This document shows, one piece after another, positions 8,966-55,300 of a stretch of 64,000 nucleotides of DNA. Under the pieces are notes generated by a model. The model ran no database searches and had not been told where the DNA came from. It saw only the letters and a list, made by a program, of their open reading frames with translations. The stretch covers positions 66,177,492-66,241,491 of the forward strand of contig NC_092497.1 of assembly GCF_047495875.1 (NCBI RefSeq), given 5' to 3'. The stretch's first letter is position 1, and each line of letters begins with the position of its first letter. Made by a program: the position numbers and the translations under genes. Origin of the DNA: Pithys albifrons albifrons. Taxonomy: Eukaryota; Chordata; Aves; Passeriformes; Thamnophilidae.

Positions 8966-11155
8966 TGCAGAATCACAGAGTCACAGGAAATGCTGAGTTG
9001 GAGGCAACCCACAAGCAACATCAAAGTCCAACTCTTACCCTTGCACAGGACCACCCCTAAGAATCACACCCCATGCCTGAGAGTGTTGTCCAAATGCTTC
9101 TAGAACTCTGTCAGGCTTGGTGCTGTGACCACTTCCCTGCAGAGCCTGTTCCAGTGCCCAACCATCCTCTGGACGAAGAATCAGTTTAAACCTCCCCTGA
9201 CATAACTTCAGGTCATTCTCTCAGGTTCTGTCACTGGTCACCACAGAGAAGAGATCACTGCCTGCCCCTCCTCTTCCCCTCAGGAGGAAGTTGTAACTGC
9301 AATGAGGTTTTCCCTCAGTCTCCTCTTCTCCGGGCTGAACAGAACAAGTGCCCTCATCCATTCCTCACACGGTCCCCTCAAAGCTCTTCACCATCTTCAT
9401 TGCCTTCTTTTAGATGTTCTCCAGTAGCTTTATATCTTTCCTATATTGTGGTGCCTAAAACTACACACAATGTTCAAGGTGAGGCTGCCCCAGTGCAGAG
9501 CAGAGCAGGATAATCCCCTCCCTCAATCAGCTGGTGATGCTGTGCCTGATGTCCCCAGGACACGGTTGGCCATCCTGGCTGCCAGGGCACTGTTGACTCA
9601 TGTGGAATTTGTCATCAACCAGGACCCCCAGGTCCCTTTCCATGACACTGCTTTCCAGTATCTCATTCCCCAGTCTGTCCATACACCCAGGGTTGCCCTA
9701 TGCCAGGTGCAGAATGTGGCACATTCCCTTGTTGAATTTCATATGGTTGGTGATTGCTCAGTCATCTGATTTGTCGAGGTCTCTCTGCAGGGCCTCCCTG
9801 CCTTCCAAGGAGTCAACAGTTCCTCCCAGTTTTGTATCATCTGTAAACTGGCTTAGTGTCCCTTCCAGTCCTGCCCAAGATGGAGGCCTGTGGAACCCCA
9901 CTAGTGACAGGTCACCAGTCTGATGTCACCCCATTCACCATTACCTGCTGTGCTCGACCCATGAGCCAATTGCTCACCCACCACATGTTGTGTTTATCCA
10001 TCTGTGGGGTTCAAATTTTGTCCAGAGGATTCTGTGATAGACAGAATCAAAAGCTTCGCTGAAATCCAAAAATATTACATGAACTGTGTTTCTTTTGATT
10101 GAGTAGGTGGGTTACATTTTGATAAAAGAAGATTGGGTTTGATAAGCAGAACTTCCATCTCATGAAGCTGTGCTGGCTCTGGCCAATGACTGTGTTGTCT
10201 TTTGGATGTTTTTCAATAGTTCCTGGAATAATCTCCCTAACTTTACCAGGCAATAAATTGACACTGACATGAATTTTGTTTCTGAAGTCCTGCTCGCCTT
10301 TCTTGAAAATCTGGATATTTCTCATATTCCTGTCAGCTGGGACCTCTCTGGATTCCCAAGACCACTCAAAAATCATCAAGAGATCTTTTGCAATGACATC
10401 AGCCAGGTCTTTGATGATTCAGAAGTGAATCCCACCAGGTCCCACAGATTTAAAGGGATTCAGCTGGAGCAGCAGATCCTGCACAATTTCAGGGTTGACT
10501 AGGAGTTGATCTTTCTTGCAGTCATGGTACTTCAGCTCAGGGCACCGAGACCCCCTTGGTCTGTCTGTGTTGCAGAGGCAAGGAAAGCACTAAAACCTCT
10601 GTTTTGTCTCTGTTCCTGTTTGTGAGGTGTCCATCTTCATCCTATAATGGGCCCATGATATTTTTATGCCCATTGCTGTAAATATATTTTTAAAACACCT
10701 TTTTGTTGTCCCCCACATTTCTGTTGAGCTGCAACTCCAGTTGAGCTTTGACTGCATGAATTTTCTCCCTGAAAAGGGACAAGCAGCATCTCTGAATTCT
10801 TCCCATGTCACTTGACCTTGCTTTCACTGGGCATACACCTTTCTTTTTGGCCTTCTTCCTGTTCAACCAAGATGGCCTTCTGCCTCACCTGTTTGAATTC
10901 CCAATTTGGGAATTGCCTGCAGGAAGTGATGTTTGAAAAGTGACCAGCACTAATGGGCCCCAGCAGCTGCAAAAAAGTGTTTTCCCAGGGGATCTTACTT
11001 ACTAATTGCCTGAGCAGCCTGAAGTCTGCTCTCCTCATGTCCAGAGTTGAGGTTTTGCTGGCACTTTTCCTCCTGTCATCAGAGATTTTAAACTCAATCA
11101 CTTCATGATTGCAGTAGCCAAGATGGCCATCAATCTCCATTTCTTGAATCTGAAA
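8966..11155 (-). mobile_element. 5'-truncated CR1, about 2.2 kb, old
   Basis: Read on the minus strand this is a long CR1 fragment. The 3' tail lies at the left (AGAATCACAGAGTCACAGG), followed by the 3' UTR, the C-terminal reverse-transcriptase region and, beyond 10.5 kb, the sequence between RT and endonuclease. Segments such as the complement of CTGAGCAGCCTGAAGTCTGCTCTCC are typical of CR1. The reading frame is broken by many stops and indels, so no long protein survives. It is more divergent than the CR1 copies at 43.5 and 52.4 kb, which suggests an older insertion. Confidence 0.85.
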
Positions 11156-29657: not shown

Positions 29658-31549
29658 TGTGGTGGGTTGAACTTGACTGGAAGCCAGGTGCCCCCCAAAG
29701 CCACTATCTGACTCCTCTCCTCAACTAGACAAGGAAGAGAAAACACAACGAAATGCCTGTAGGTCAAGATAAAAGTAGGAGTTCATTCACCAATTACCAT
29801 CATGGGCAAAACAGACTCAATTCATGGAAACTAATTTTAATTTATTACCAATCAAATCACAGTATGATAATGAAAAATAAAATCAAATGTTAAAACACCT
29901 TTCCCCCCCTCCCCGCTCCCACCCCACTTTCCTTTGTCACAGGCTCAACTTCACTCATAAATTCTATATCTTCTCCACTCAGGAGCTGCAGTCAGTTCAG
30001 CACACACTGTCTCTATTGCTCCTTCCTCACACACTCTTCCTCTGCTCCACAGGAGATATGAACTTCTCAAACATGAGTCCATCCCACACACTGCAGTTCT
30101 TCATGAACTGCTCCAGCATGGGTCCCTTCCATGGGATGCGCTGCCTCAGGAACAGATGGGTTCAGTAAGTCACCCATGGGGTCACAAAGTGCTGCCAGCA
30201 AACCCACATCAGTGTGAACTCCAGTCTTCAGAGGGCCACAGCCCCTGTCAGGAGCCTGCTCCAGTGTGATCTTCTCACATGGTCACAAGATCCTTTGGGC
30301 ACAACCACCTGCTTTGGTGTGAGGTCCTACACAATCTGCAGGTGGATATCTGCCTCCACTGTGGACCTTCATGCGCTGAAGAAGGACAACTTACCTTACC
30401 ATTATCTTCACCACAGTCTGTCAGGGAATCTGCTGTGGTGCATGGAACATCTGGATAGACTTGAGAGATGGGCTGATTCCAATGGGATGAAGTTCAATAA
30501 GGCCAAGTGCCGGGTCCTGCTCTGGCCACAACTCCATGCAGTGCTACAGGCTGGGCATAGAGTGGCTGGAGAGCAGCCAGGCAGAAAGGGACATGGGGGT
30601 ACTAATTGACAGGAAGCTCAACATGAGCCAACAGTGTGCCCAGGTGGCCAAGAAGGCCAGTGGGATCCTGACCTGTATCAAAAATAGTGTGGCCAGCAGG
30701 ATGAGGGAAGTGATCCTTCCCATGTACTCTGCGTTGGTGAGGCCACACCTTGAGTACTGTGTTCAGTTCTGGGCCCCTCAGTTCAGAAAGGATATTGAGG
30801 TGCTGGAGTGGGTCCAGAGAAGAGCAACAAGGCTGGAGAAGAGACTGGAGCACAAGTCCTATGGGAGAGGCTGAGGGAGCTGGGGTTGTTTAGTCTGGAG
30901 AAGAGGAGGCCTAGAGGTGACCTCATCACTGTCTAGAACTACCTGAAGGGGAGTTCTAGCCAGGTGGGGGTTGGTCTCTTCTCCCAGGCACTCAGCAATA
31001 GGACAAGGGCTCAAGCTCTGCCAGGTGAAATTTAAGTTGGAGATCAGAAAAAAATTCTTTCCAGAGAGTGTAATCAGGCATTGGAATGGGCTGCCCAGAG
31101 AGGTGGTGGATTCACCATCCCTGGAGATTTTTAAATGGAGATTGGATGTGGCACTGAGTGCCATGATCTGGTAAATGGACTGGAGTTGGACCAAGGGTTG
31201 GACTTGATGATCTCGGAGGTCTTTTCCAACCCAATCGATTCTGTGATTCTGTGATCTCCTTCCCCTCCTTCTTCATTCACGCTGGTGCCTGCAGAGCTGT
31301 TTCTCCCACGTATTCTCAGTTTTTGCTTCCAGCTCCTGCTGCACTGCACATTTCCCCTGTTCTTATGTAAGTGATCCCCCACACCCCCCAAGCCCATTGC
31401 TAATGGGCTTGGCCTTGACTGTCAGTGTTTCCATCTTGGTGCCATCTGGCATTGGGTCTGTCAGACATGGGGGAAACTTCTGGTAGCTTCTCACAGAAGC
31501 CACGCTTGTAGCCCCTCCATTACGAAAAACTTGCCGCGCAGACCAAATA
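29658..31549 (+). mobile_element. Solo ERV LTR of a second family, split by a CR1
   Basis: The left part, 29658-30450, starts TGTGGTGGGTTGAACTTGAC, the opening of a long LTR family I recognise from passerine genomes. It contains a minisatellite-like series around CTGCTCCAGCATGGGTCCC. The right part, 31256-31549, continues the same LTR from CTCCTTCCCCTCCTTCTTC through CAGACATGGGGGAAACTTCT and ends near GCGCAGACCAAATA. The two halves are separated by an 805-bp CR1. Without the CR1 the LTR is about 1.09 kb. The terminal CA is lost and no target duplication is evident. I place it with ERVK-like LTRs, but that assignment needs a library search. Confidence 0.75.
30451..31255 (+). mobile_element. 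CR1 3' segment nested in the LTR
   Basis: It starts at CTGGATAGACTTGAGAGATG and ends in the CR1 tail GATTCTGTGATTCTGTGAT at 31255, so it is 5'-truncated and complete at its 3' end. An open frame at 30536-30874 encodes the C-terminal part of the CR1 reverse transcriptase, with recognisable stretches such as [19 protein letters not shown] and [19 protein letters not shown]. The frame then breaks. LTR sequence resumes at the next base, which makes the CR1 the later arrival. Confidence 0.9.
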
Positions 31550-34561: not shown

Positions 34562-35088
34562 TGTCGCAGGTCTGGCCTAGCTGTTGCCAACCCTGGACTG
34601 GCCCCCCTTCCCCCTCCCAGAACCTTCCCAGCAAAGGAAAGGAAAAAAAAACGGAAAAGAAACGCACTCTAAAGAAACTGAACTGAATAAAAAGAATAAA
34701 TTATGTTTACTAACATTTACAAACCACACTGTATACACAATACAGGATCCCCCCCCCCCAGGGGAGAGGGGAAAGGAGAAAAGGGGATTGATTAGCCGGA
34801 AAATAGGGAAGACACCAACCCAACCCAAAGAAACTGAATGAATCAAAACAAACACAATTAAAAACCTCAAGGAAGGGGAACAAGAATGAAACAATCTCAC
34901 CCAGGACAGGAGAAACACCAGGAACCGGAGGGACCAGACTTCAACCACCTCCCTCCAGCTCCTCAGCCAAGGACCGGAAAGTAAGAACCAAACCACTCCC
35001 CCACTGCTACGTGGAAGACACGTGTGGAATACTTGTAACTTCCTTAGATACAATGATTACTGAGGAAGCCATGGGTCAAACCATTACA
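34562..35088 (-). repeat. Proviral 3' LTR
   Basis: On the plus strand it runs from TGTCGCAGGTCTGGCC to GTCAAACCATTACA, so the LTR proper reads TGTAATGGTTTGACC...CGACA with TG/CA ends. The left boundary is set by divergence from the other LTR, and the right boundary by the purine-rich tract that follows directly. It contains a homopolymer C run near 34749-34760. It has an extra 8 bases near 35014 compared with the 5' LTR. A 158-codon frame on the minus strand inside it starts at TTG and is interrupted in the other LTR, so it is not called as a gene. Confidence 0.88.
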
Positions 35089-35448: not shown

Positions 35449-36366
35449 TTAGTTCTTCCCCAAGGCTAGATTGCTTTGGGGCACACACTGGATCTCACCA
35501 TCTTTCCTCATTACCCACCAGGTGTTTCCGGACCCTTGGGCAAAAACAATCTTGGCCCAAGGTTTGTCTTGGCCCAAGGGAGGGGTAATCCAGACAGATT
35601 TCCCTAACATGCCTCTCAAGTGAATCGCTGGAACTTTGTCTCCATCTACCGTGTGGAGGGATTCTGCTTGGGCAGGACCAGCTCGATTGACAGAGCCTCT
35701 GGTGTTAACTAACCAGGTGGCCTTGGCTAAACGCTTATCCCAGTTCTTGAAGGTTCCTCCTCCTAGTGCCTTCAGAGTTGTTTTTAATAGTCCATTGCAC
35801 CTTTCAACCTTTCCAGCAGCAGGTGCGTGATATGGAATGTGATATACCCATTCAATACCATGCTCCCGTGCCCAAGTGGCCACGAGATTGTTCTTGAAAT
35901 GAGTCCCATTATCTGACTCAATGCGATCTGGAGTGCCATGCCTCCACAAGACCTGTTTCTCAAGGCCCAAGATAGTATTGCGGGCCGTTGCATATGGTAC
36001 TGAATATGTCTCTAACCATCCAGTGGTAACTTCTACAATGGTAAGCACATGGCACTTACCTTGGCTAGTCTGTGGCAATGTGATGTAGTCAACCTGCCAG
36101 GCCTCTCCGTATTTATACTTGTCCCAGCGTCCACCATACCAAAGGGGCTTCAATCTTTTTGCCTGCTTAATGGTGGCACAGGTTTCACAATCGCGGAAAA
36201 CCTGGGAAATAGTGTCCATGGTTAAATCCACCCCTCGGTCTCGTGCCCATTTATAGGTTGCATCCCAGCCTTGATAGCCTGAAGCATCACGGGCCCATTG
36301 AGCTAGGAACAATTCTCCCTTTTGCTGCCAATCGAGGTCTAGTTGTGACACCTCAATCTGTGCAGC
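35449..36366 (-). pseudogene. pol: Retroviral integrase (end of pol)
   Basis: The open segment gives 300 codons from a GTG at 36351 and continues in the same frame as RT and RNase H, behind an in-frame stop at 36367-36369. The catalytic triad is visible: Asp88 in WQVDYI, Asp147 in ESDNGTHF and Glu183 in KVERCNG. The Asp147-Glu183 spacing of 35 residues is the classic D,D(35)E arrangement. The N-terminal zinc site looks damaged. Cys55 and Cys58 are present, but Arg21 and Tyr26 sit where the His pair would be expected. The C-terminal part ends at a stop at 35449. The enzyme would join viral DNA to the chromosome. With the upstream stops it is not made as part of a complete Pol here. Confidence 0.9.
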
Positions 36367-37434
36367 TCAGTCTGCCTGTCTGTTATTATCTTGTTTCTCA
36401 TTAGCTCGACCTTTGGGCACATGGGCATCTACATGGCGGACTCTCACGTTCAATTTCTTTACTCTGGCAGCAGTGTCTTGCCACAGATCTGCAGCCCAGA
36501 TGGGCTTCCCTCTACGCCTCCAATTCATCTTCTCCCACCGGTCTAGCCATTCCCAGAGAGCATTTGTTATCATCTATGAGTCGGTGTACAAGTAGAGCCT
36601 TGGCCATCCTTCTCTTTCTGCAATGTCTAGGGCCAATTGGACAGCTTTGAGTTCTGCGAACTCACTCGATTCGCCTTTCCCCTCAGTGGCTTCTGCCACC
36701 TCCTGGGTGGGATTCCACACAGCTGCTCTCCACTTCCGGCTCCTCCCTACGATACGGCAAGAACCATCAGTGAAAAGGGCGTAGTGCGTCTCTTCATCTG
36801 GCAGCTGATTATATGGTGGAGCTTCTTCAGCTCGACTCACTGACTCTTCCTCTTCTTCATCTGCCAGGCTGAAGTTCCCACCTTCAGGCCAATTGGTTAT
36901 AATTTCTAGAATTCCAGGGCGATTCGAGCTCCCAATTCGAACACATTGTGTAATCAAAGCAATCCACTTGCTCCTCGTGGCATCGGTGGCATGGTGTGTA
37001 GGGGGCACTTTTCCTTTGAACATCCAGCTTAACACTGGTAGTCGAGGTGCCAGGAAAAGCTGGGCTTCAGTACCAATTACCTCTGAGGCTGCTCGTATGC
37101 CTTCATATGCTGCTAGGATTTCCTTCTCCATAGGGGTGTAATTGGCCTCAGAGCCTTTGTAGCTTCGGCTCCAGAAACCAAGTGGTTGCCCTCGTGTCTC
37201 ACCAGGCACCTTTTGCCAGAGGATCCAGGAGGGACCTTTATCTCCAGCTGTGGAATAAAGTACATTCTTCACATCTGGTCCCATCCTGACTGGTCCAAGA
37301 GCCACGGCATGTGCGATTTCTTGCTTGATCTGCTTGAAAGCCTGTTGTTGTTCAGGACCCCATTGGAAAATGTTCTTTTTACGGGTTACAAAATAGAGAG
37401 GGCTCACAACCTGGCTGTACTCTGGGATGTGCAT
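36367..37434 (-). pseudogene. pol: Pol connection and RNase H, interrupted by a stop
   Basis: One frame with RT upstream and integrase downstream, separated by in-frame stops at 37435-37437 and 36367-36369 and cut inside by TAG at 36574-36576. In the first 286 residues the connection domain is followed by RNase H: Asp223 in YALFTDGSCR, Glu261 in SSEFAELKA and Asp285 in YLYTDS. The remaining 68 codons carry VRHVDAHVP, the conserved region that closes RNase H. The internal stop falls directly after the third acidic residue. RNase H would degrade the RNA strand of the RNA/DNA hybrid during reverse transcription. Confidence 0.9.
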
Positions 37435-38644
37435 TCACCAGAAGCCTATGGCTCCCAGAAATGCATGGGTCTCTTTCTTGTTAGTCGGTGGAGCCATTGC
37501 TACAATCTTATTGATGACGTCGGTTGGAATCTGGCAACGTCCATCTTGCCATTTCACCCCAAGGAACTGAATCTCTCTGGCAGGTCCCTTGACCTTGCTC
37601 TTTCTGATGGCAAAACCAGCTTTGAGGAGAATCTGAATAATCTTTCGTCCTTTTTCGAAGACTTCTTCTGCTGTGTCTCCCCATACAATGACATCATCAA
37701 TATACTGGATGTGTTCTGGGGCCTCACCCTTCTCCAATGTGGCCTGGATCAGCCCATGACAAATGGTTGGACTGTGTTTCCACCCCTGGGGCAATCGGTT
37801 CCAGGTGTACTGCACGCCCCTCCAGGTGAAAGCAAACTGTGGCCTGCACTCTGGTGCCAGAGAAATGGAGAAGAATGCATTAGCAATGTCAATAGTGGCG
37901 TACCACTTTGCTGCTTTGGACTCCAGCTCATACTGGAGCTCCAACATAACTGGCACAGCAGCACTCAGCGGTGGCGTAACTTCATTCAGGCCACGATAGT
38001 CCACCGTCAGTCTCCATTCTCCATCTGATTTACGTACAGGCCAGATAGGGCTGTTGAAGGGTGAGTGTGTTCTACTGACCACCCCTTGGCTCTCCAGCTT
38101 CCTGATCATTTTATGGATGGGAATCACAGCATCTCGGTTTGTACGATACTGTTGCCTATGTACAGTTGCAGTGGCCATCGGTACTTCTTGATCATTGACT
38201 CGGAGTAATCCCACAGCAGAAGGGTCTTCTGAGAGACCAGGGAGAGTAGACAACTGTTTGGACTCTCCTTCAATCACTGTGGCTACACCAAAAGCCCACC
38301 AGTACCCCTTCGGGTCCTTAAAGTGTCCTCTTTTTAAATAGTCCATACCAAGAATGCTAGGGGCTTCTGGTCCTGTCACAATGGAATGCTTTTCCCATTG
38401 GTCTCCTGTTAGGCTCATGTCAGCCTCTACCACCGACAGGTCCTGAGACCCTCCGGTTACTCCAGAAATAGACAGTCTCTGTACTCTCATGTTCTGATGG
38501 CATTAATGTACATTGGGCACCAGTATCTACCAAAGCTCGGTATTTCTGAGGATCTGATGTGCCAGGCCATCGAACCCACACAGCCCAGTAAACCCGATTA
38601 TCATCCTCGTCCCTCTCCTCCTCCTGGCAGGAGGCAGAGCCCCT
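37435..38644 (-). pseudogene. pol: Protease and reverse transcriptase of pol
   Basis: The aspartyl protease signature (Asp-Thr-Gly-Ala, codons starting at 38527) is in the gag frame, 39 codons after the gag TAG stop. The rest of the protease and all of RT are one frame over, open from 38490 for 351 codons, so a shift lies just after the active site. In that frame ILGMDYL near residue 47 is protease C-terminal. RT follows with Asp201 in ATIDIANAFF, LPQG at 233-236, the catalytic YIDD at 263-266 and FLG at 309. The frame ends with TGA at 37435-37437 directly after GFW, in the RT thumb/connection. The sequence clearly resembles ERVL-type Pol. Confidence 0.92.
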
Positions 38645-40406
38645 CTATTGTTGTTCCTGGTCGGAGCATTCTCCATCTGACGTGTGCGATGCTCTGTCAG
38701 AGGCTCCTTCATCAGCATGGGGGGAGTTGTTTCTTTTGCGTCTCGGAGATCGATGTTTCTTTTCCGGGGTCTTTGCTTCAACTATGTGGACAGCTTTCTT
38801 GCCAGCTACTTTCCGTTTTAATTCTTGCACTCGGGCTTTAAGTTTAGGGGTGGGTTCACCGTGCCATTTTTTCATGTTTTCCCCTAGTTCGCGCAGAAGG
38901 GCCCACAAGAAACCACGCTCACTTTGTGTCTTACTCCTGGGGCTTCCAGTTTTCTCTCGTGCTGCATGAGATGACCGAGAATGGGAACGGGAACGAGAAC
39001 GAGAACTGGAACGAGAATAAGAACGAGACCTTTCTTTGCGACCTCTAGAACGTCTGTGTCTAGGTTCTTCTTCATACACAGAGCGTCTAGTATTCCTCTG
39101 GTGGCCTCTAGTTCTCCCTCGTGCTGCATGAGGTGACCGAGAACAGGAACGGGACCAAGAATGGGAACGGGAACTTGAACGAGAATGAGAACGAGACCTT
39201 TCTTTGCGACCTCTAGAATCTTTGCCTCTAGGTTCTTCTTCATACACATAGCGTCTAGGATTCCTCCCTACCCTTTCCCCACTGTAGAGGGAAGAATGCT
39301 GGTGGTTAGAGGGGACCCTCATGGTTTCCGATATTCTCCGTATCCAGTGGCACATTCTGTCAACGTGTATCTCATTCTCGTCCATACTTAGAGGGTATGC
39401 AGATATCAGACACGGCATATAAGATTTAGGGGCCCCATTCATCACCTTATCCCACATCGGCTGTGTGCATGGCATCTTCTCTGGGATCAAGATGTCATAG
39501 TAATTTGGATCAGAGTATATAATCTCCAACATGGCCAGTTCCCGCAGATACTGGATGCCTTCTTCTGCAGTATTCCACTCTCTTGGAGCACTCACCAAAT
39601 ACTCTTTAAATGGGTATCTTGCCCTCACGGCACGGAGGATTCGGGTCCAGAGACTGGATGCCATCTTCCCCTGTCCCATTTCCTGTTCTATTTCACGGTC
39701 TCGGGCAAGAGATCCCAATTGTTGTGCTTCATGACCTTCCAGCACATGACTACTGGCCCCCTGGTCCAAGCATCGCACCAGCCAGGTGAGGATGCGTTCA
39801 TTGGGCCACCGACTGTAATCCCTTCGTATATCTCGAATCTCCTTTGGGGTCAATGATCGTATAATTTCACTTTCCCTCATTATTTCCTGTCCATCTCTTC
39901 CACGTACTATTCTCTCTACCTGTGTTTTTACTCTTCCACTCCTTCGTGGAACCTCTCTCACTTCCTTTCTGACCCTCTCACGCGAAGATGGGGATTGTTC
40001 ACGCCGTGAGGATGAGCTTCTATGGTGTTCACTCTGGGAGGATGGGCCTACGTCGTCCACGCTGTGGAGAGAGACTTCTACTTCGTTCGAGCCGTGGGGA
40101 AAGACTCCTAGCTCGTGCACCCCGTGAAAGGGAGCTCCTGCATTGTTCATCAGGTCTGATGAATGGAGGTAGCACATAGTCCTTGGAAGGCCTGGGTAAG
40201 GGCTTTCCCCGATCATCTATTCCCTCAAATGTAGGTCTAGTATGGGGAGGTGGAATCATACCTCCAAAGGAGGGTTGCCTTTGGAGAGGCTGAAACGGTC
40301 CTTCCTCAGGCTGATGGAAGCGCGTTGACCACCTCTCTTCCTCCACTGGGTACTTGCGTATGTAGTCAGAGCACCAATCGTCGAATGTTATTCTATCCCA
40401 GGATGC
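38645..40406 (-). pseudogene. gag: Gag: ERVL-like capsid plus Arg/Ser-rich domain, frameshifted
   Basis: The main frame gives 523 codons (ATG at 40216 to TAG at 38645). Residues about 115-300 are capsid-like, with TWLVRCLDQGASS and EAQQLGSLARD resembling ERVL Gag. Residues 335-420 are dense in Arg-Ser dipeptides. They form two copies of a 54-residue unit (162-nt direct repeat) that begins with VYEEEPR. I see no CCHC zinc knuckle. The true N-terminal part is in another frame, open from 40406 with no ATG and ending at 40029; it also becomes RS-rich, so the shift lies about 40040-40060. That frame overlaps the last 14 bases of ORF1. Gag normally builds the particle shell and packages RNA. Confidence 0.85.
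38957..39214 (-). repeat. Tandem 162-nt repeat encoding the Gag RS region
   Basis: The plus-strand landmark GCTGCATGAG starts at 38961 and again at 39123, and CTTTCTTTGCGACCTCTAGA recurs with the same spacing. The unit is a multiple of three, so the duplication keeps the frame and doubles the RS-rich segment. The copies differ at several bases and by a few residues. Confidence 0.85.
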
Positions 40407-42285
40407 TCACACCATCCCTTTCCTTTCTCCTGGCATGCCTCTGGTCTCTTTTGGACGTGCCCCCAAGTCCCATTAGGTGTGCCCCATCCCTTGTGACCAC
40501 TCCTCCCTCTCTGGCGGCTGCTCCCTCTTCTGCTGTGACTATTCTTTCCTCTCGTGCCATCGCTCCTTCCATCGTCACAGTAGTTTCTTCCTCTCTTGCA
40601 TCTGCTTCTTCGTCTGCTTCTTCTTCTTCTTCTTTTTCTTCTTCTTCTTGTTCCTCTTCTTCTTCTTCTTGTTCCAATTGCGGAGGTGGCTCTATGGGTT
40701 TTGTAGTCTCCTTTGTCCTTGTTGTTTTCTTCTTTATGGGGGCAATGATAATCTTCCGGTCCATAACTTCAGTTTGAGTTCCCACAGAGCGAATAGGAAC
40801 TGTATCCGCGTCGGCTTGAGTTTGAGCTTCGACTATGGTTTTGGTGGGTTTAGTAGGAATGGCCACTTCCAGATCTGCAGCTTGAGTCTGAGTTTCCACA
40901 GAGCGAATAGAAACTGTATTGACGTCGGCCTGAGTCTGAGCTTCAACTGTGGTCTTAGCAGGCTTAATAGAGATGGCAACCTCCAGATCTACAGCTTGAG
41001 TCTGAATTTCTACGGAGCAACTGGAAGCTGTATTAGCTTCAGCTTGCGTCTGGGTTTCAGCCGTGGTTGTAGCGGGGACAGCAGAAATGGCCTTGTCCAG
41101 ATTTGCAGCCTGAGTCTGGGTTTCTGTCAAGCAAACAGAGACCATATTTGCTTCAGCCTGCGTCTGAATTTCAGCTGTGGTTGTAGCAGGGACAGCAGAA
41201 ATAGCCTTGTCCAGATTTGAAGCCTGAGTTTGGGTTTCTACCGAGCAAACAGAGGCTGTATTAGCTTCAGCAACTTGAGTTTGGGTCTCTACAGAGTGAA
41301 CGGGGGCTTTGTTGGCCTCAGTTTGAGTCTGAGTTTCAACTGTAGTTTTAGCAGGGACAGCCGAGATAGCCATGTCCGGGTCTGCAGCTTGAGTTTGGGT
41401 TTCTACAGAGCGGACGAAGGCTGTATTAGTTTCAGCTACTGGAGTTTGGGTCTCTACAGAAACAACATCGACCTCATGCTGTGTTTGGACTCTGCTTTCG
41501 GTAGTCTGAATGGGGACTACACGGATCTTGGATGGCATATCTCCAAATTCTATCCTGTCCTCAAGCCATTGACAGTAGTCCATGGCACATCGATAAGCAC
41601 TAGCCAGGCCCCAACACAAAGCAGAGACTCGCGTATACGGGTCCTCATAGGAAAAACACTCTTCTGACAAACAGCGGGCCACCTCAGCAGAGTCACACAC
41701 TTGTTCTGACGTGAACTTCCAATATACGGAGGGTGAGATATGCCCTAGCACTTTACCGAGATCCGACCAAGCCCCATCCCACCCCGGGACTGGCCTGTCC
41801 AAAGCCCCTTCCAAAGTTCCAGCGAGTCCCCCAGAGGCATAGCCTTTCTTAGGTCTGAAACAAGGGAAGCAACAAAGTGCCAGCATTCTTCCAATCTTAT
41901 ACAACAGTTTCATTACCTTCATAAACACTAGTGCTGTCACAACACAATTTAGGTAATAACTGGGACCAATTGTAACAGTAGGGATCTCTCTCAATAGTCC
42001 ATTAATGTCATAATTTAACAGGCCTTTAATGTCACATGTCAACAAGTCTTTAATGCCAAGATTCAGGAGGGCCTTACATGGATGACAATTATCAGGCAGA
42101 CCTAGGTATGTCCCTAGGAGACCTCTCAGAGTGGGAGTAAGCATTAGCACCATCAGTATGTAAAAGAATAGAAAGACACTTAACAGGAGGCCTTTCACTA
42201 CAAGAGACTGCCAGGCCATGCCAGCATGGTTGGAGTGACCTCCTCTGGTACCTCTCAGGTATTTGCTAAAAAGGGTAAAAACCAT
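40393..42285 (-). CDS. ORF1: pre-gag membrane protein with TQT repeats, unknown function
   Basis: An intact 630-codon frame lies between the primer binding site and gag. Its ATG at 42285 has A at -3 and G at +4, a good initiation context. I do not recognise a family. Residues 28-50 and about 110-137 are hydrophobic and likely membrane-spanning, the second followed by a Cys cluster (LCCFPCF). Residues 180-245 are Cys-rich and may fold. Residues 276-506 are tandem repeats of 38 residues holding thirteen ETQT-like motifs, nine with an exact TQT. Residues 538-567 are nearly all Glu, and the C-terminus is basic. The TQT core suggests binding of dynein light chain LC8, an inference. It could instead be an N-terminal extension of Gag now split off by a shift. 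Its openness contrasts with the broken pol. Confidence 0.75.
   Translation of the reverse strand: MVFTLFSKYLRGTRGGHSNHAGMAWQSLVVKGLLLSVFLFFYILMVLMLTPTLRGLLGTYLGLPDNCHPCKALLNLGIKDLLTCDIKGLLNYDINGLLREIPTVTIGPSYYLNCVVTALVFMKVMKLLYKIGRMLALCCFPCFRPKKGYASGGLAGTLEGALDRPVPGWDGAWSDLGKVLGHISPSVYWKFTSEQVCDSAEVARCLSEECFSYEDPYTRVSALCWGLASAYRCAMDYCQWLEDRIEFGDMPSKIRVVPIQTTESRVQTQHEVDVVSVETQTPVAETNTAFVRSVETQTQAADPDMAISAVPAKTTVETQTQTEANKAPVHSVETQTQVAEANTASVCSVETQTQASNLDKAISAVPATTTAEIQTQAEANMVSVCLTETQTQAANLDKAISAVPATTTAETQTQAEANTASSCSVEIQTQAVDLEVAISIKPAKTTVEAQTQADVNTVSIRSVETQTQAADLEVAIPTKPTKTIVEAQTQADADTVPIRSVGTQTEVMDRKIIIAPIKKKTTRTKETTKPIEPPPQLEQEEEEEEQEEEEKEEEEEADEEADAREEETTVTMEGAMAREERIVTAEEGAAAREGGVVTRDGAHLMGLGGTSKRDQRHARRKERDGVSILG
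40612..40675 (-). repeat. GAA/GAG-rich tract encoding the ORF1 acidic run
   Basis: On the plus strand this is a CTT/TTC-rich microsatellite-like run. In the ORF1 frame it encodes the Glu-rich segment at about residues 538-567. Its length is likely to vary between copies. Confidence 0.85.
40768..41456 (-). repeat. Tandem 114-nt repeats encoding spaced TQT motifs
   Basis: In ORF1 the motif-initiating residue recurs at 278, 295, 317, 333, 350, 372, 388, 410, 426, 448, 464, 486 and 502. From 350 on the spacing alternates 22 and 16, so the unit is 38 residues with two motifs each. Exact TQT occurs at 279, 296, 318, 334, 351, 389, 411, 465 and 503; the other four read IQT or AQT. Neighbouring copies have diverged at the nucleotide level. 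Confidence 0.9.
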
Positions 42286-42444: not shown

Positions 42445-42462
42445 ATCTCGGTGGAACCTCCA
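42445..42462 (-). promoter_or_regulatory. Primer binding site, tRNA-Gln
   Basis: On the minus strand TGGAGGTTCCACCGAGAT lies four bases after the end of the 5' LTR. All 18 bases are complementary to the 3' end of vertebrate tRNA-Gln including its CCA. This is where the tRNA would prime minus-strand DNA synthesis. Class III elements are named after a leucine primer, so glutamine is noteworthy. Confidence 0.9.
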
Positions 42463-42466
42463 ATAA

Positions 42467-43007
42467 TGTCGCAGGTCTGGCCTAGCTGTTGCCAACCCTG
42501 GACTGGCCCCCCTTCCCCCTCCCAGAACCTTCCCAGCAAAGGAAAGGAAAAAAAACTGAAAAGAAACGCACTCTAAAGAAACTGAACTGAATAAAAAGAA
42601 TAAATTATATTTACTAACATTTACAAACCACACTGTATACACAATACATAGGATCCCACCCCCCAGGGGAGAGGGGAAAGGAGAAAAGGGGATTGATTAG
42701 CCGGAAAATAGGGAAGACACCAACCCAACCCAAAGAAACTGAATGAATCAAAACAAACACAATTAAAAACCTCAAGGAAGGGGAACAAGAATGAAACAAT
42801 CTCACCCAGGACAGGAGAAACACCAGGAACCGGAGGGACCAGACTTCAACCACCTCCCTCCAGCTCCTCAGCCAAGGACCGGAAAGTAAGAACCAAACCA
42901 CTCCCCTACTGCTACGTGGAGTGGAATACTTGTAACTTCCTTAGATACAATGGTTACTGAGGAAGCCATCTTGCCCCCCTGCCAGTGGGTTGTCTCGGCA
43001 GATAACA
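42467..43007 (-). repeat. Proviral 5' LTR, with a differing outer end
   Basis: It matches the 3' LTR from TGTCGCAGG (42467) to GGAAGCCAT (42969). Beyond that the two LTRs differ. Here the plus strand continues to CGGCAGATAACA at 43007, giving a possible TGTTATCTGCCG start on the minus strand, whereas the other LTR starts TGTAATGG. The TG/CA ends make 43007 a plausible boundary. The alternative is that the LTR is simply broken at 42969. Confidence 0.7.
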
Positions 43008-43134: not shown

Positions 43135-46100
43135 TCACAAAATCACTGAATCATAGGATGGGTACAGTTGGAAGGGACCACAGTGGGTCATGTTGTTCAA
43201 ACTCCCGGTTGCAGGGTCATCCTAGAGCATGTTGCATAGGATTGCATCTGGACGGTTCTTGTATAGCTCTAGTGAGGGAAACTCCATAACCTCTAGGGAG
43301 AATCTGTTTCACTGCATGGTCATCAATATAGTAAGTAAATTCTTCCTCATGTTACAGTGGAACTTCCTGTGCACTAATTTCTGCCAATGTCCTATTGCCT
43401 GGCAACAGCAGAAGAGCCTGACTCTGTCCTCTTAACAAGCTCCCTTCAGATATTTATAAACATGGATGAGGTCCCATCTCAGCTGTCCCTTCTTGAGGCT
43501 GAACAGGCCGAGCTGCTTCACCCTTTCCTCATAAAAGAGATCATAGAATCATAGAATCAACTGCGTTGGAAGAGACCTCTGAGATCATCAAGTCCAACCC
43601 TTGATCCAACACCATGGCACTCAGTGCCATATCCAGTCTCATCTTAAAAACCTCCAGGGACAGAGAATCCACCACCTCTCTGGGCAGGCCATTCCAGTGC
43701 CTGATTACTCTCTCCATAAAGAATTTCTTTGTAATATCCAACCTAAACCTCCCCTGGCAGAGCTTAAGTCCATGCTCTCTTGTTCTATTGCTGGTTGCCT
43801 GGGAGAAGAGACCAACACCCACCTGACTACAACCTCATTTCCTGTTATTGTAAAGAGTGATGAGGTCATCCCTGAGACTCCTCTTCTCCAGACTAAACAA
43901 CCCCAGCTCCCTCAGCCTCTCCCCACAGGTAGGACTTGTACTCAGGTTCCTTTGCCAGCCTTGTTGCTCTTCTCTGGACCCGCTCCAGCACCTCAATATC
44001 TTTCCTGAACTGAGGAGCCCAGAACTGAACACAATACTCAAGGTGTGGCCTCACCAGCGCAGAGTACAGGGGAAGGATCACTTCCCTCATCCTGCAGGCC
44101 ACACTATTCTTAATACAGGTCAGGATCCCATTGGCCTTCTTGGCCACCTGGGCACACTGTTGGCTCATGTTCAGCATCCTGTCAGTCCAAACTCCCACGT
44201 CCCTTTCTGCCTGTCTGCTCTCCAGCCACTCTGTCCTCAGCCTGTAGTGCTGCAGGGCGTTGTTGTGGCCAAAGTGCAGGACCCGACACTTGGCCTTGTT
44301 GAACTTCATCCCATTGGAATCAGCCCATCTCTCAAGTCTATCCAGGTCCCTCTGCAGAGCCCTCTTGCCTTCCAGCAGATCGACACTCCCTCCCAACTTG
44401 GTGTCACGACGTTACAGTTCCCTAATCATTTTTGCAAACCTCTATTGAATTTGCTCCAGGAGCTCCATGTCCATCTTGTACTGAGGAGCCCAGAACTGGA
44501 CACAGCACTCAACATGTGGCTTCACTAGGGATGAGAAGAAAGGCAGGATCACCTGCCTTGTCCTGCTGGGAATGCTTTTCCTAATGCGCTCCAGGCTACC
44601 CTTGGCTTTCTTTGCCGTCAGGACACACTGCTGGCTCATGGACAGCTCGTTGTCCTCCAGAATTCCCAGGTCCTTTTCTGCAGAGCTGCTTTCCACTAGG
44701 TCAGCCCTAGCCTGTACCTGAGGTTATTCCTCCCCAGCTGAAGGATCCTGCATTTCCATTTGTTGAATTCCAGATGGTTCCTCTCTGCCCATCTCTCCAA
44801 CTTGTTGAGGTTCTTGTGGATGACAACACAGCCCTCTGGGGTATCAAACACTCCTCAAAACTTTGCTTTGTCAGTAAACTCAGTGAGGAGGCCTCTGTCG
44901 TTGATGGTGTTGGGCCCAGTATTGAACCTTTCGGGGATACTATTAGAGACAGGCCTTCACTAGACCCTGTGTCACTGATTATGACCCTCTGGGATCTGCC
45001 ATTCACCTGGTTCTCAATCCACTCACAATACACTTACCCATTCTGCGTTTTCTGAGTTTGCCTATGAGGATGTGAGAGACAGTGTCAAAAGCTTTGCTGA
45101 AGTTGAGGTAGACAATATCCACCTCTCTCCCCTCATCCATCCAGGTGGGCGTCTTATTATGAAAGGCAATGAGGTTCGTCAAGCATGTTTTCCTTTAGTT
45201 AATTCATGCTGACTACTTCTCATCACCTTCTTGTCCTCCATGTTCCTAGAAATGGTTTCCAGAACAAGGTGCTCCATCATGTTTCCAGGGATTGAGGTGA
45301 GGCTGACTGTCTGGTCTTTCTTTCCCTTTTTGATGACTGGGCTGACATTTGCTTTCTTCCAGTCCTCAGGCACCTCTTCTGATCACCATGACCATTCAAA
45401 ATGATTGCGAGCAGCCCAAGCTCTCCCAGCATTTGTGAATGCATCCTATTCTCTAATGAAATCCCCCTTGTCCAAGAGAAAGTCTTCCTTTCACATTTCA
45501 TTTTTCCTTGACTCCTGGATCAGAGATTCCTGAGGGCTGATCTTGCCAGTGAAAATCAAGAAAGTGTTCACAAAGTCTGCCTTCCCTGCATTCTCTGTTA
45601 CCAGGGTCTCCCCTCTGTTTGGCAACAGTCCCATATTTTCTTTAGTTTTCCTTTTGTTATTGATCTATTTGAAGAAGCCCTTCTTATTGTTCTTGACATC
45701 CCTGTCCAGATTTAATTCCACATGGTTCTTGGCCTCCCTGGCCTCATTTCTACTCAGACAATGACTCTATATTTATTTCCAGTTGTCTGTGCCTTCTTCC
45801 ACCTCCTGTGTTTTTCCTTCTTGTGCCTGAGTATTGTCAAGAGCTACTTTTTCATCCGCACAGGTCTTTTGACCCTTTCCTCAATTTCTTGCTTATCAGG
45901 ATATGCTACTCCTGAGCCTGAAGGAAGTGGTGCTTGACTATTGATCAGCTACCCTGGACTCCTCTTCCCTGCAGGTTGCATTCCCATGGAATTCTTCCAA
46001 GGAGATCCCTCAGGCAAAAGTTAGCTCTCCTGAAGCCTGTGGTTGTGATTTTACTTCTTGTCTCTCCTTCTACATGCAAGATACTGAGCTCCACAATCTG

Positions 46101-52369: not shown

Positions 52370-55300
52370 GCATAGAATTACAGAATTGATTGGGTTGGAA
52401 AAGATCTCTGAGATCATCAAGTCCAACCTTTGGTCCAACTCCAGTTCATTTACTAGATCATGGCACTCAGTGCCACGTCCAATCTCAGTTTAAAAACCTC
52501 CAGGGACAGTGAATCCACCTCCTCTCTGGGCACACCATTCCAATGCCTGATTACTCTGTAAAGGATTTTTGATTGATCTCCAACTTAAATTTCCCCTGGC
52601 AGAGCTTGAGCCCGTGCCCCCTTGTCCTATTGCTGAGTGCCTGGGAGAAGGGACCAGCCCCCACCTGGCTAGAACTTCCCTTCAGGTAGTTCTAGACAGT
52701 GACGAGGTCACCTCTGAGCCTCCTCTTCTCCAGACTAAACAACCCCAGCTCCCTCAGCCTCTCCCCACAGGGCTTGTGCTCCAGTCCCTTCACCAGCCTT
52801 GTTGCTCTTCTCTGGATCCACTCCAGCACCTCAATATCCTTTCTGAACTGAGGGGCCCAGAACAGAACACAATACTCAAGGTGTGGCCTCACCAACGCAG
52901 AGTACAGGGGAAGGATCACTTCCCTGGTCCTGCTGGCCATGCTATTTTTGATACAGGTCAGGATCCCACTGGCCTTCTTGGCCACCTGGGCACACTGTTG
53001 ACTCATGTTGAGCTTCCTGTCAATTAGTACCCCCATGTCCCTTTCTGCCTGGCTGCTCTCCAGCCACTCTGTGCCCAGCCTGTAGCGCTGCAGGGGGTTG
53101 TTGTGGCCAAAGTGCAGGACCCGGCACTTGGCCTTGTTGAACTTCATCCCATTGGAATCAGCCCATCTCTCAAGTCTATCCAGGTCCATCTGCAGAGCCC
53201 TCCTGCCTTCCAGCAGGTGGACACTCCCTCCCAACTTGGTGTCATCAGCAAATTTGCTGATGATGGACTCAATCCCCTCATCTAAATCATCAATAAAGAT
53301 GTTCAAAAGGACTGGACTCAACACTGACCCCCGGGGAACACCACTAGTGACCAGCTGCCAGCTGGATGCAGCTTCATTCACCAGCACTCTCTGGGCCTGG
53401 CCCTTCAGCCAGCTCCTAATCTAGCAGAGGTTACGCTTGTCCAAGCCCTGGGCTACCAGCTTTTCCAGGATTATATTATAGGAGACAGTGTCAAAGGCCT
53501 TGCTGAAGTCTAGATAGACCACATCCACAGCCTTACCCTCATCCACCAGGGGGATCACTTGTTCAGAAAAGCAGATCAGGTTGGTCAGGCAGGATCTAAA
53601 CCCATGCTGGCTGGGTCTAATCCCTTGTCCACCCTGAAGGTGCTGTGTGATTGCACTCAGGATGATCTGCTCCATAACCTTGCCAGGCACCAAGGTCAGG
53701 CTGACAGGCCTGTGGTTTCCCTGGTCCTCCTTGAAGCCTTTTTCGTGGATTGGCATGATATTGGCCAACTTCCAATCATCTGGAAACTCTCCAGAGGGCT
53801 AGGATTGTCAGTGGATGATGGAGAGTGGCTTGGCAAGCTCTTTCACCAGGTCCCTCATCACCCTGGGATGGATCCCATCTGGCTCCATACACTTGTTAGG
53901 ATACAGGTATCTCAGTAAGTCACTAACTATATCCTTCTGGAATACAGGGAGGCTATTCAGCTTCCTGACTCTGTCTACCAGCCCTGTAGGCCTGTTGTCC
54001 AGAGGGCCATCTGTCTTACTGGTGAAAACTGAGGCAAAGTAGGTGTTAAGTACCTCAGCCTTCTCCTCATCTCTGGTAACTAATTTTCCCCCAAGTCCAA
54101 CAAAGAATGGAGGTTTTCATTGCTCCTCCTTTCGTTATGAATGTATTTATAGATACACTTTTTGCTATCCCCAACAGAAGTAGCCAAATTGACTTCAAAT
54201 TGTGCGTTTGCCTCTCTAATTTTCTTTCTACATACCCTAACTATAATTCTAAACTCTTCATGAATAGCCAACTCCCTTTTCCACAGTCGGTAAGCTCTCT
54301 TTTTTTAACTTGATTTCCTTCAGAATCTCCCTGTTCAACCAAGCTGGTTGTCTTCCCTGCTGACTAGCCTTTTGGCACACTTGTACAGCCTGTTCCTGTG
54401 CACTCAAGTCTTCTTTCTTGAAGGATGTCCATTCCATCTGTAGCCCTTTGTTTTCAAGGGTTTTTTCCCAGGGTACACTCAGGATCAGTCTTCTGAATAG
54501 GCCAAAATCTGCCCTCTGGAAGCCCAGCGTAGAGGTCTTGTTGATCTCCCACCTTGCATCCCTGAGTATTGAAAACTCCACCATGGTCACTGTGCCCCGA
54601 CCACTATGTCTCCAACCAGCCCCTTTCTGTTTGTAAACAGCAGGTCTAGTGTGGTCCCACCTCTGATAGATTCATTTACCAGTTGAAGCAGTAAATTATC
54701 CTCTATACACTCCAGGAACCTCCTAGACTGCCTGTTCTCTGCCGTGTTGAGCTCCCAGCAGATATCCAGCAGGCTGAAGTCATTCACCAACTGCTTGTAG
54801 AATAATTCATCCCCTTCATCATCCTGGTTGGGTGGTCATTAACAGACTTACACCAGGATGTCAGTCTTGTTGGCCTTCCTCCTGATTCTGGTCCACAGGC
54901 ACTGAACCTTATTGTTGGTGACCTCAAGTTCTACACAGACAAGAGACTCTAAAATACAGAGCCACCTCCTAGCCTCTCCTACCCTGCCTGTCCTTTCTGA
55001 AGAGCTCATAGCCCCCCATAGCAGCACTCCAATCATGTGACTCATCCCACCACATTTCTGTGACAGCAACTACATCATAGCTTTCATGCTGCACTATGGC
55101 TTCCAGCTCCTCTTGTTTGTTTCCCATACTGCATGCATTAGTATACATGCACTTCACCTGGACTACTGATTTCACTCCTAATTCTGGCTTACCACCTTTA
55201 GGCTCATCTCTGGAGAGCCTGGTTTCAGTCCCTTCCCCCTTTGAACCTAGTTTAAAGCCCTCCTGATCAGCCCCACCAATTTAGGGGCTACAGTTCTTTT

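What the first reader, a model, noticed from the sequence alone, without database searches (positions are those of the whole stretch)
40393..42285. Intact 630-codon ORF ahead of gag in an ERVL-type provirus
Retroviruses normally begin with gag after the leader. Here an open frame as long as gag comes first, with a strong start context, two predicted membrane segments, a Cys-rich middle, a repeat array and an acidic run. I know of no characterised retroviral protein with this layout. It may be a captured or newly evolved gene, or a split-off N-terminal half of Gag. It is fully open while pol in the same copy has three stops and a frameshift.
Basis: partly seen in the sequence, partly recalled or inferred. 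Interest (0 to 1): 0.88.

Follow-up and report, generated by a model that had tools for sequence, protein, structure and literature searches.

The report
Membrane-anchored front half of bird Gag
The long open frame in front of 'gag' in this bird endogenous retrovirus is not an extra gene but the front half of the Gag protein itself, cut off in this copy by shifts of reading frame, and in its bird relatives this half carries greasy segments predicted to anchor Gag in a cell membrane, with repeats here that would likely bind a motor-linked cell protein.

Summary
The 630-codon frame is real (42285..40393, minus strand) but is the N-terminal half of Gag, not an extra gene. Of 123 relatives examined, 76 carry its conserved domain, and 71 of these have it ahead of capsid in one chain. 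Passerine relatives P0001, P0124 and P0129 match window stretches lying in two or three frames, so this copy's gag is split by two frame changes; ORF1 staying whole has p about 0.15. The half itself is unusual: hydrophobic N-terminal segments (two or more in 15 of 18 members with a long N-terminus, none after the domain), a helical domain without a solved match and an array of TQT motifs (10 seen, 0.77 expected) whose units differ with dN/dS 0.15-0.60. Best reading: an env-less, foamy-related bird retrovirus whose Gag is predicted to be an integral membrane protein and would likely recruit dynein light chain LC8. The searches listed no description of it. Membrane insertion and LC8 binding are untested.

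The parts
42467..42969 (-). 5' LTR, lacking the first 16 nt that the 3' LTR has; no matching target-site duplication seen by eye
   Evidence: 501 of 519 columns identical to the 3' LTR, 13 of the 18 differences being gap positions
42445..42462 (-). primer binding site; fits the 3' end of tRNA-Gln (tRNA sequence recalled, not from a call)
40393..42285 (-). ORF1, 630 codons: N-terminal half of Gag; its last roughly 10-35 codons run on outside the frame that relatives use
41869..42225 (-). hydrophobic membrane-anchor region (residues 21-139): segment 32-50 strong, segment 114-132 marginal, followed by Cys and basic residues
   Evidence: window; relatives
41551..41835 (-). conserved helical domain ('B', residues 151-245), block means of pLDDT 86-95 over residues 171-250
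40763..41451 (-). TQT repeat array (units of 114 nt), putative LC8-binding motifs; 10 TQT in the linker against 0.77 expected
40035..40469 (-). middle of Gag (linker before capsid), in a different frame from both ORF1 and the capsid part
   Evidence: P0001 and P0124 match here in frame -3
38645..39979 (-). capsid and C-terminal part of Gag (within the frame 40216-38645), ends with TAG
38420..38644 (-). protease-like piece (LVDTGA), in the same frame straight after the gag TAG; no Pfam match, named by a recalled motif
35449..38502 (-). pol: RT (38490-37435), RNase H (37434-36574 and 36573-36367), integrase (36366-35449), separated by in-frame stops
34562..35088 (-). 3' LTR, TGT...ACA, 527 bp

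Best explanation
The frame is the N-terminal half of the Gag protein of an env-less bird endogenous retrovirus, separated from its capsid half in this copy by changes of reading frame, and it is predicted to anchor Gag in a cell membrane and would likely recruit the dynein light chain LC8. Shown: relatives carry both halves in one chain; the conserved domain and capsid vary together; hydrophobic segments precede that domain in 28 of 33 members inspected, and none follows it in the 18 scored; the TQT array of this copy is far above chance and its units have kept their amino acids. Inferred: Gag is inserted into the ER membrane as it is made, with the loop between segments facing the lumen (a glycosylation sequon lies there in 8 of 18 members) and the conserved domain, linker, capsid and C-terminus in the cytosol (net positive charge after the last scored segment in 16 of 18). 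Capsid would then assemble against that membrane without Env or myristate, and LC8 dimers would tie Gag chains together through the TQT motifs or link them to dynein. In the window copy the N-terminal half alone could at most give a membrane protein without capsid.
For: Homology and fusion: (71 of 76). Frames in the window. Some continuous examples nearly fill short contigs from unnamed sources (P0005, 602 aa on 2,081 bp; P0017, 593 aa on 2,348 bp; P0037, 664 aa on 2,616 bp), which leaves little room for spliced gene models. Co-variation of domain and capsid. Hydrophobic segments, sequons, charge. TQT: 73 observed against 7.8 expected in 70 linkers, and 10 against 0.77 in the window. Selection on the array: pooled pS 0.49, pN 0.22 in frame, near equal in the two other frames; Fisher p 0.002 and 0.004 for two non-overlapping unit pairs that I picked from the ten as closest. 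LC8 motif [D/S]KX[T/V/I]Q[T/V][D/E] and selected consensus VSRGTQTE: abstract of PMC3078936; the window's last site reads RSVGTQTE. Precedents: MuERV-L particles accumulate in the ER (passage, PMC5930517); ERV-L and foamy Gag are listed without a myristylation signal (table passage, PMC8278194); foamy Gag binds LC8 (passages, PMC3705263).
Against: Membrane insertion rests on hydropathy and on a model of mean pLDDT 70. The window's second segment is marginal (1.55); 3 of 18 members show one segment only; 5 of 33 inspected show none (P0009, P0035, P0041, P0046, P0067), some of these being chimeric or short models. Two duck models are negatively charged after the last segment, and for ORF1 and P0037 the charge was scored after the first segment because the second missed the cut-off. 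TQT is absent from 33 of 70 linkers, so LC8 binding cannot be essential in the whole family, and the linkers are related, so 73 against 7.8 overstates independence. PMC6607443 says that many TQT peptides do not bind LC8 (passages), and foamy Gag uses a coiled coil, not TQT. P0001, P0124 and P0129 are annotated gene models, which could join frames artificially. The capsid part gave a poor model (pLDDT 55) without a PDB match.
Confidence: 0.8

Rival explanations
1. ORF1 is a separate accessory gene, captured or newly evolved, that stands in front of gag and is made as its own protein.
For: In the window it ends with its own stop and is fully open. One of the five proteins with the domain but without capsid behind it, P0106, ends soon after the domain, though it is a chimera with a non-LTR reverse transcriptase.
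Against: 71 of 76 proteins with its conserved domain have it in one chain with capsid; none of the other five is a clean stand-alone ORF1 protein; parts of the window's gag that lie in different frames map to single passerine proteins; ORF1's survival is expected by chance at about 0.15.
Confidence: 0.04
2. ORF1 is the N-terminal half of Gag, but its hydrophobic part is a cleaved signal or matrix-like region that does not stay in the membrane, and the TQT array is only a drifting repeat.
For: Linker repeats are replaced by alanine-proline-threonine repeats in many relatives and TQT is absent from 33 of 70; repeats grow and shrink between members.
Against: Two or three well-separated hydrophobic segments, not one N-terminal signal, in 15 of 18 members; selection on the coding frame of the array in this copy.
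Confidence: 0.2
3. The N-terminal half was kept open in this genome because the host uses it, for example as a Gag-derived restriction factor like Fv1 (recalled).
For: The frame is intact while the rest of gag-pol is broken; low dN/dS among its repeat units.
Against: Only five mismatches outside gaps separate the LTRs, so there has been little time; an intact ORF1 beside six breaks has p about 0.15; dN/dS among units may reflect selection before insertion.
Confidence: 0.05

Closest known systems
ERV-L / MuERV-L Gag (class III endogenous retroviruses)
   Same: Env-less layout; ERV-L Gag is listed without a myristylation signal (table passage of PMC8278194); MuERV-L particles accumulate in the ER (passage of PMC5930517).
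   Different: No dUTPase was found after integrase here, and the primer binding site fits tRNA-Gln rather than tRNA-Leu (recalled). I had no mammalian ERV-L Gag sequence to compare, so whether it has such an N-terminus is open.
Foamy virus (spumaretrovirus) Gag
   Same: Nearest solved RTs are of foamy type; foamy Gag also lacks zinc fingers and binds LC8 (passages of PMC3705263).
   Different: Foamy Gag has no membrane-binding domain and relies on Env, and its LC8 site is a coiled coil. No sequence relation between the Gags was tested.
MLV glycogag
   Same: A Gag whose N-terminal extension makes it an integral membrane protein (passage of PMC5120145).
   Different: Glycogag is an additional form beside normal Gag, type II with its C-terminus outside the cell; here the hydrophobic part belongs to the gag frame itself and the capsid side is predicted to be cytosolic.
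XtERV-S Gag of African frogs
   Same: ERV-L-related Gag without myristoylation signal or Cys-His box (section read).
   Different: It has polybasic N-terminal regions, PSAP and a major homology region; the bird Gag has hydrophobic segments, and its strict match to that homology pattern fails.
Ty1 Gag of yeast
   Same: Gag synthesis at the ER nucleates the assembly site (abstract of PMC3945221).
   Different: Ty1 Gag is described as translocated to the lumen and returned, not anchored; no homology tested.

Membership tests
Gag of this bird endogenous retrovirus lineage | conserved N-terminal domain and capsid in one polypeptide, in that order | tested here: met
   71 of 76 proteins holding the domain, of 123 examined; passerine P0001 and P0124 match window stretches in three frames, P0129 in two
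Gag of this bird endogenous retrovirus lineage | position straight after LTR, primer binding site and leader | tested here: met
Class III (spuma-related) retroviruses | RT closest to foamy virus RT | tested here: met
   the top five solved matches are protease/RT proteins of foamy type, E 1.3e-34 to 8.2e-32 (that these entries are foamy virus is recalled); similarity only, no tree was built
ERV-L | dUTPase domain after integrase | tested here: not met
   integrase frame ends at 35449 and the 3' LTR starts at 35088, 361 nt; minus-strand frames there are at most 54 codons; the 305-residue integrase frame gives integrase and a weak DDE match only; the 361 nt itself were not scanned against Pfam
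ERV-L | tRNA-Leu primer binding site | tested here: inconclusive
   the site fits tRNA-Gln; tRNA sequences recalled
Orthoretroviral Gag | N-terminal myristylation signal (MG...) | tested here: not met
   ORF1 starts MVFTLFSK; 9 of 138 proteins start MG...[STAGCN], of which 6 start inside the conserved domain, 1 in the loop, 1 in the linker and 1 at the start of capsid, so I take them as truncated models
Orthoretroviral Gag | CCHC zinc finger in nucleocapsid | tested here: not met
   0 of 138 proteins and not in the window's gag frame
Orthoretroviral Gag | major homology region QX3EX4(hydrophobic)X2R | tested here: not met
   strict pattern in 1 of 138 and not in the window; a conserved QYLRELA stretch is in 116 of 138
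Retroviral matrix fold | structural match of the N-terminal domain to a solved matrix protein | tested here: inconclusive
Integral membrane proteins | two or more hydrophobic segments long enough to span a membrane | tested here: inconclusive
   by hydropathy in 15 of 18 members; in the window one clear (2.55) and one just under the cut-off (1.55)
LC8/DYNLL clients | TQT-type motifs in a disordered segment | tested here: inconclusive
   motif part met: 10 TQT in a 275-residue linker, 0.77 expected; disorder was not predicted
LC8/DYNLL clients | measured binding to LC8 | not testable with these tools
   needs an experiment

The most novel reading that the evidence does not exclude
Birds carry a widespread family of env-less retroviruses whose Gag is itself a multi-pass membrane protein: it builds its capsid on the ER from an integral N-terminal anchor, dispenses with Env, myristate and a classical matrix, and in some lineages uses a selected ladder of LC8 motifs to zip Gag chains together and ride dynein.
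Probability: 0.35. Interest if true: 0.75.

Novelty: new variant of a known kind. Interest (0 to 1): 0.5.

Why it matters
How the Gag of env-less class III endogenous retroviruses reaches intracellular membranes is not explained by a myristate, since ERV-L Gag is listed without that signal (table passage), while MuERV-L particles accumulate in the ER (passage). A Gag with its own predicted membrane anchor, seen in proteins from a mousebird, cranes, an ibis, hawks and eagles, goose and duck and in shorter models from an owl and a manakin, would answer this in a directly testable way. The TQT array offers a second testable point, since LC8 binding is already reported for foamy Gag. It also removes a tempting false lead: there is no extra gene ahead of gag here.

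Tried and rejected
ENS-1/ERNI, the chicken Soprano retroviral protein, was my first guess for a frame of this kind. The passages I saw describe a coiled-coil and HP1-box protein (PMC3958431); no sequence was compared, so it was set aside, not tested. Pfam gave nothing above its cut-offs in ORF1 and no match in the capsid frame. A PDB sequence search with the Gag alignment A3 gave only matches with E of 0.42 or more. Fold searches with both models gave no convincing match. Scans of viral and prokaryote contigs for relatives' DNA found none, so dN/dS across copies could not be done; dN/dS among repeat units inside the frame was used instead. The window's own genome could not be searched: the genome search answered 'busy' all eight times. 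The 2008 MuERV-L paper was not held. Late-domain motifs (patterns recalled): PPTY in 5 hawk and eagle proteins of the 18 long members scanned, and a YPGL in the window's second gag frame, in a stretch where relatives use another frame; not pursued.

Limits on counts. The second homology search scored only the 7,994 candidates sharing most words, found 174 proteins and listed 120; the 123 proteins of the first two searches went into. The fifteen new proteins of the third search (P0124-P0138) entered the counts and, in part, the mapping (12 chosen proteins), but not or the co-variation test. Of the 33 sequences (window included) inspected, 28 have a hydrophobic segment; 5 have none. For the count of 18 (window included) I kept sequences with at least 100 residues before the domain and no RT, and left out by hand P0019, P0041, P0046 and P0106 as chimeric; P0041 and P0046 have no segment. 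For the linker count, linkers under 20 or over 320 residues were dropped (70 kept). For the co-variation test 42 proteins passed length cut-offs. The chance of 0.15 assumes six independent, evenly placed breaks in 6.84 kb and is rough. The two Fisher tests use two of ten unit pairs. That Willisornis, Manacus and Myiozetetes are suboscines is recalled; the taxonomy tool gives passerine families Thamnophilidae, Pipridae and Tyrannidae.
Full report
What is there. The window holds an endogenous retrovirus on the minus strand: a 5' LTR (42969-42467), a primer binding site (42462-42445), ORF1 (42285-40393), a second gag frame (40216-38645), a protease-like piece, RT, RNase H, integrase, and a 3' LTR (35088-34562). 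There is no room for env: the integrase frame ends at 35449, 361 nt before the LTR. The LTRs differ by five mismatches and 13 gap positions in 519 columns, so the insertion is fairly young.

ORF1 is Gag. A search with residues 1-260 found four bird proteins. One, an uncharacterised mousebird protein of 680 residues (P0003), has hydrophobic segments, a domain like ORF1's, TQT-type repeats, an acidic run, and then the capsid region that in the window lies in the separate 'gag' frame. A search with P0003 gave 174 hits, 120 of them listed, with bird names or from unnamed sources. Of the 123 proteins then in hand, 76 contain ORF1's conserved domain, and in 71 it precedes capsid in the same chain. 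In the other five the capsid is missing or the model is a jumble (P0002, P0004, P0019, P0086, P0106); P0106 is a chimera with a non-LTR reverse transcriptase, and none is a clean stand-alone ORF1. Some continuous examples nearly fill short contigs from unnamed sources (P0005, P0017, P0037), so splicing by annotators is unlikely to be the general cause.

How this copy is broken. Matched to the window piece by piece, P0001 (Willisornis) lies in frame -2, then -3, then -1; P0124 (Manacus) likewise; P0129 (Myiozetetes) in -2 and then -1. So the gag of this copy is split by two frame changes, one near the end of ORF1 and one between about 40035 and 39979. Relatives with an unbroken gag frame exist. 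With two breaks in gag and four in pol, the chance that the first 1.83 of 6.84 kb stays whole is about 0.15, or 0.21 with five breaks, so ORF1's openness needs no special explanation.

The domain is not a recent capture. Distances between proteins in the conserved domain and in capsid are correlated (Mantel r 0.73, p 0.001, 42 proteins), as expected if the two have travelled together.

The repeat array. The window's linker holds 10 TQT against 0.77 expected after shuffling; over 70 relatives' linkers there are 73 against 7.8, in 37 of the 70. Relatives are not independent, and some lineages have other repeats instead. In the window the glutamines of the motifs (TQT and the variants IQT, VQT and AQT) alternate with spacings of 16 and 22 residues over the later part of the array. 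Five 114-nt units compared with each other give dN/dS from 0.15 to 0.60 in ten pairs, pooled pS 0.49 and pN 0.22; the other two frames give near-equal values. Two non-overlapping close pairs give Fisher p 0.002 and 0.004. The array was therefore under selection for its amino acids while it grew, most likely before insertion. The sequences fit the published LC8 motif (PMC3078936, abstract); the last site, RSVGTQTE, is close to the selected consensus VSRGTQTE. PMC6607443 warns that many TQT peptides do not bind (passages).

How it most likely works. Shown: a gag frame that begins with hydrophobic segments, no myristylation signal, no zinc finger, and no env in this provirus. Inferred: insertion into the ER membrane while being made, capsid part in the cytosol, assembly against that membrane, and LC8 joining Gag chains or tying them to dynein. 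MuERV-L particles accumulate in the ER (passage in PMC5930517), ERV-L and foamy Gag are listed without a myristylation signal (PMC8278194), and foamy Gag binds LC8 through a coiled coil (PMC3705263). MLV glycogag is an integral membrane Gag, but an additional form with its C-terminus outside (PMC5120145).

Novelty. Ten paper searches were made. Those aimed at an additional frame before gag, at class III bird Gag with a transmembrane domain, and at transmembrane helices in avian Gag listed nothing that by title or abstract start describes this layout, in a library that lacks most subscription papers; apart from passages of PMC8278194 I saw only listings there. I rate it a new variant of a known kind.

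Noticed in passing
42969-42467 and 35088-34562: The 5' LTR lacks the first 16 nt present in the 3' LTR and no target-site duplication is seen, which suggests a truncated or recombined 5' end.
   Followed up: partly
38647-38420 (minus strand): The gag stop is TAG and a protease-like piece follows in the same frame; the Willisornis protein P0125 has Q at about that place. This would fit readthrough as in MLV, or a changed Gln codon.
   Followed up: partly
P0046, P0079, P0082, P0110 (other birds): Parts of this Gag are fused into annotated models of host genes: USP4 isoform X3 in Buteo, AMFR isoform X1 in two parrots and an owl (P0046, P0079 and P0110 checked). Exonisation or annotation error; the AMFR case in two bird orders deserves a look.
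   Followed up: no
P0124 (Manacus vitellinus): A protein named 'neurofilament heavy polypeptide-like' is this Gag.
   Followed up: yes
38928-39266 (minus strand): The part of gag after capsid holds an imperfect 168-nt tandem repeat that codes for an Arg-Ser-rich stretch; no zinc-finger motif is present.
   Followed up: no
30451-31261, 43408-45867, 52456-54304, 9067-10859: Several fragments of a non-LTR reverse transcriptase, CR1-like by recall, lie around the provirus; stretches at 30.5-31.3 kb and 43.5-44.3 kb form an inverted pair.
   Followed up: no
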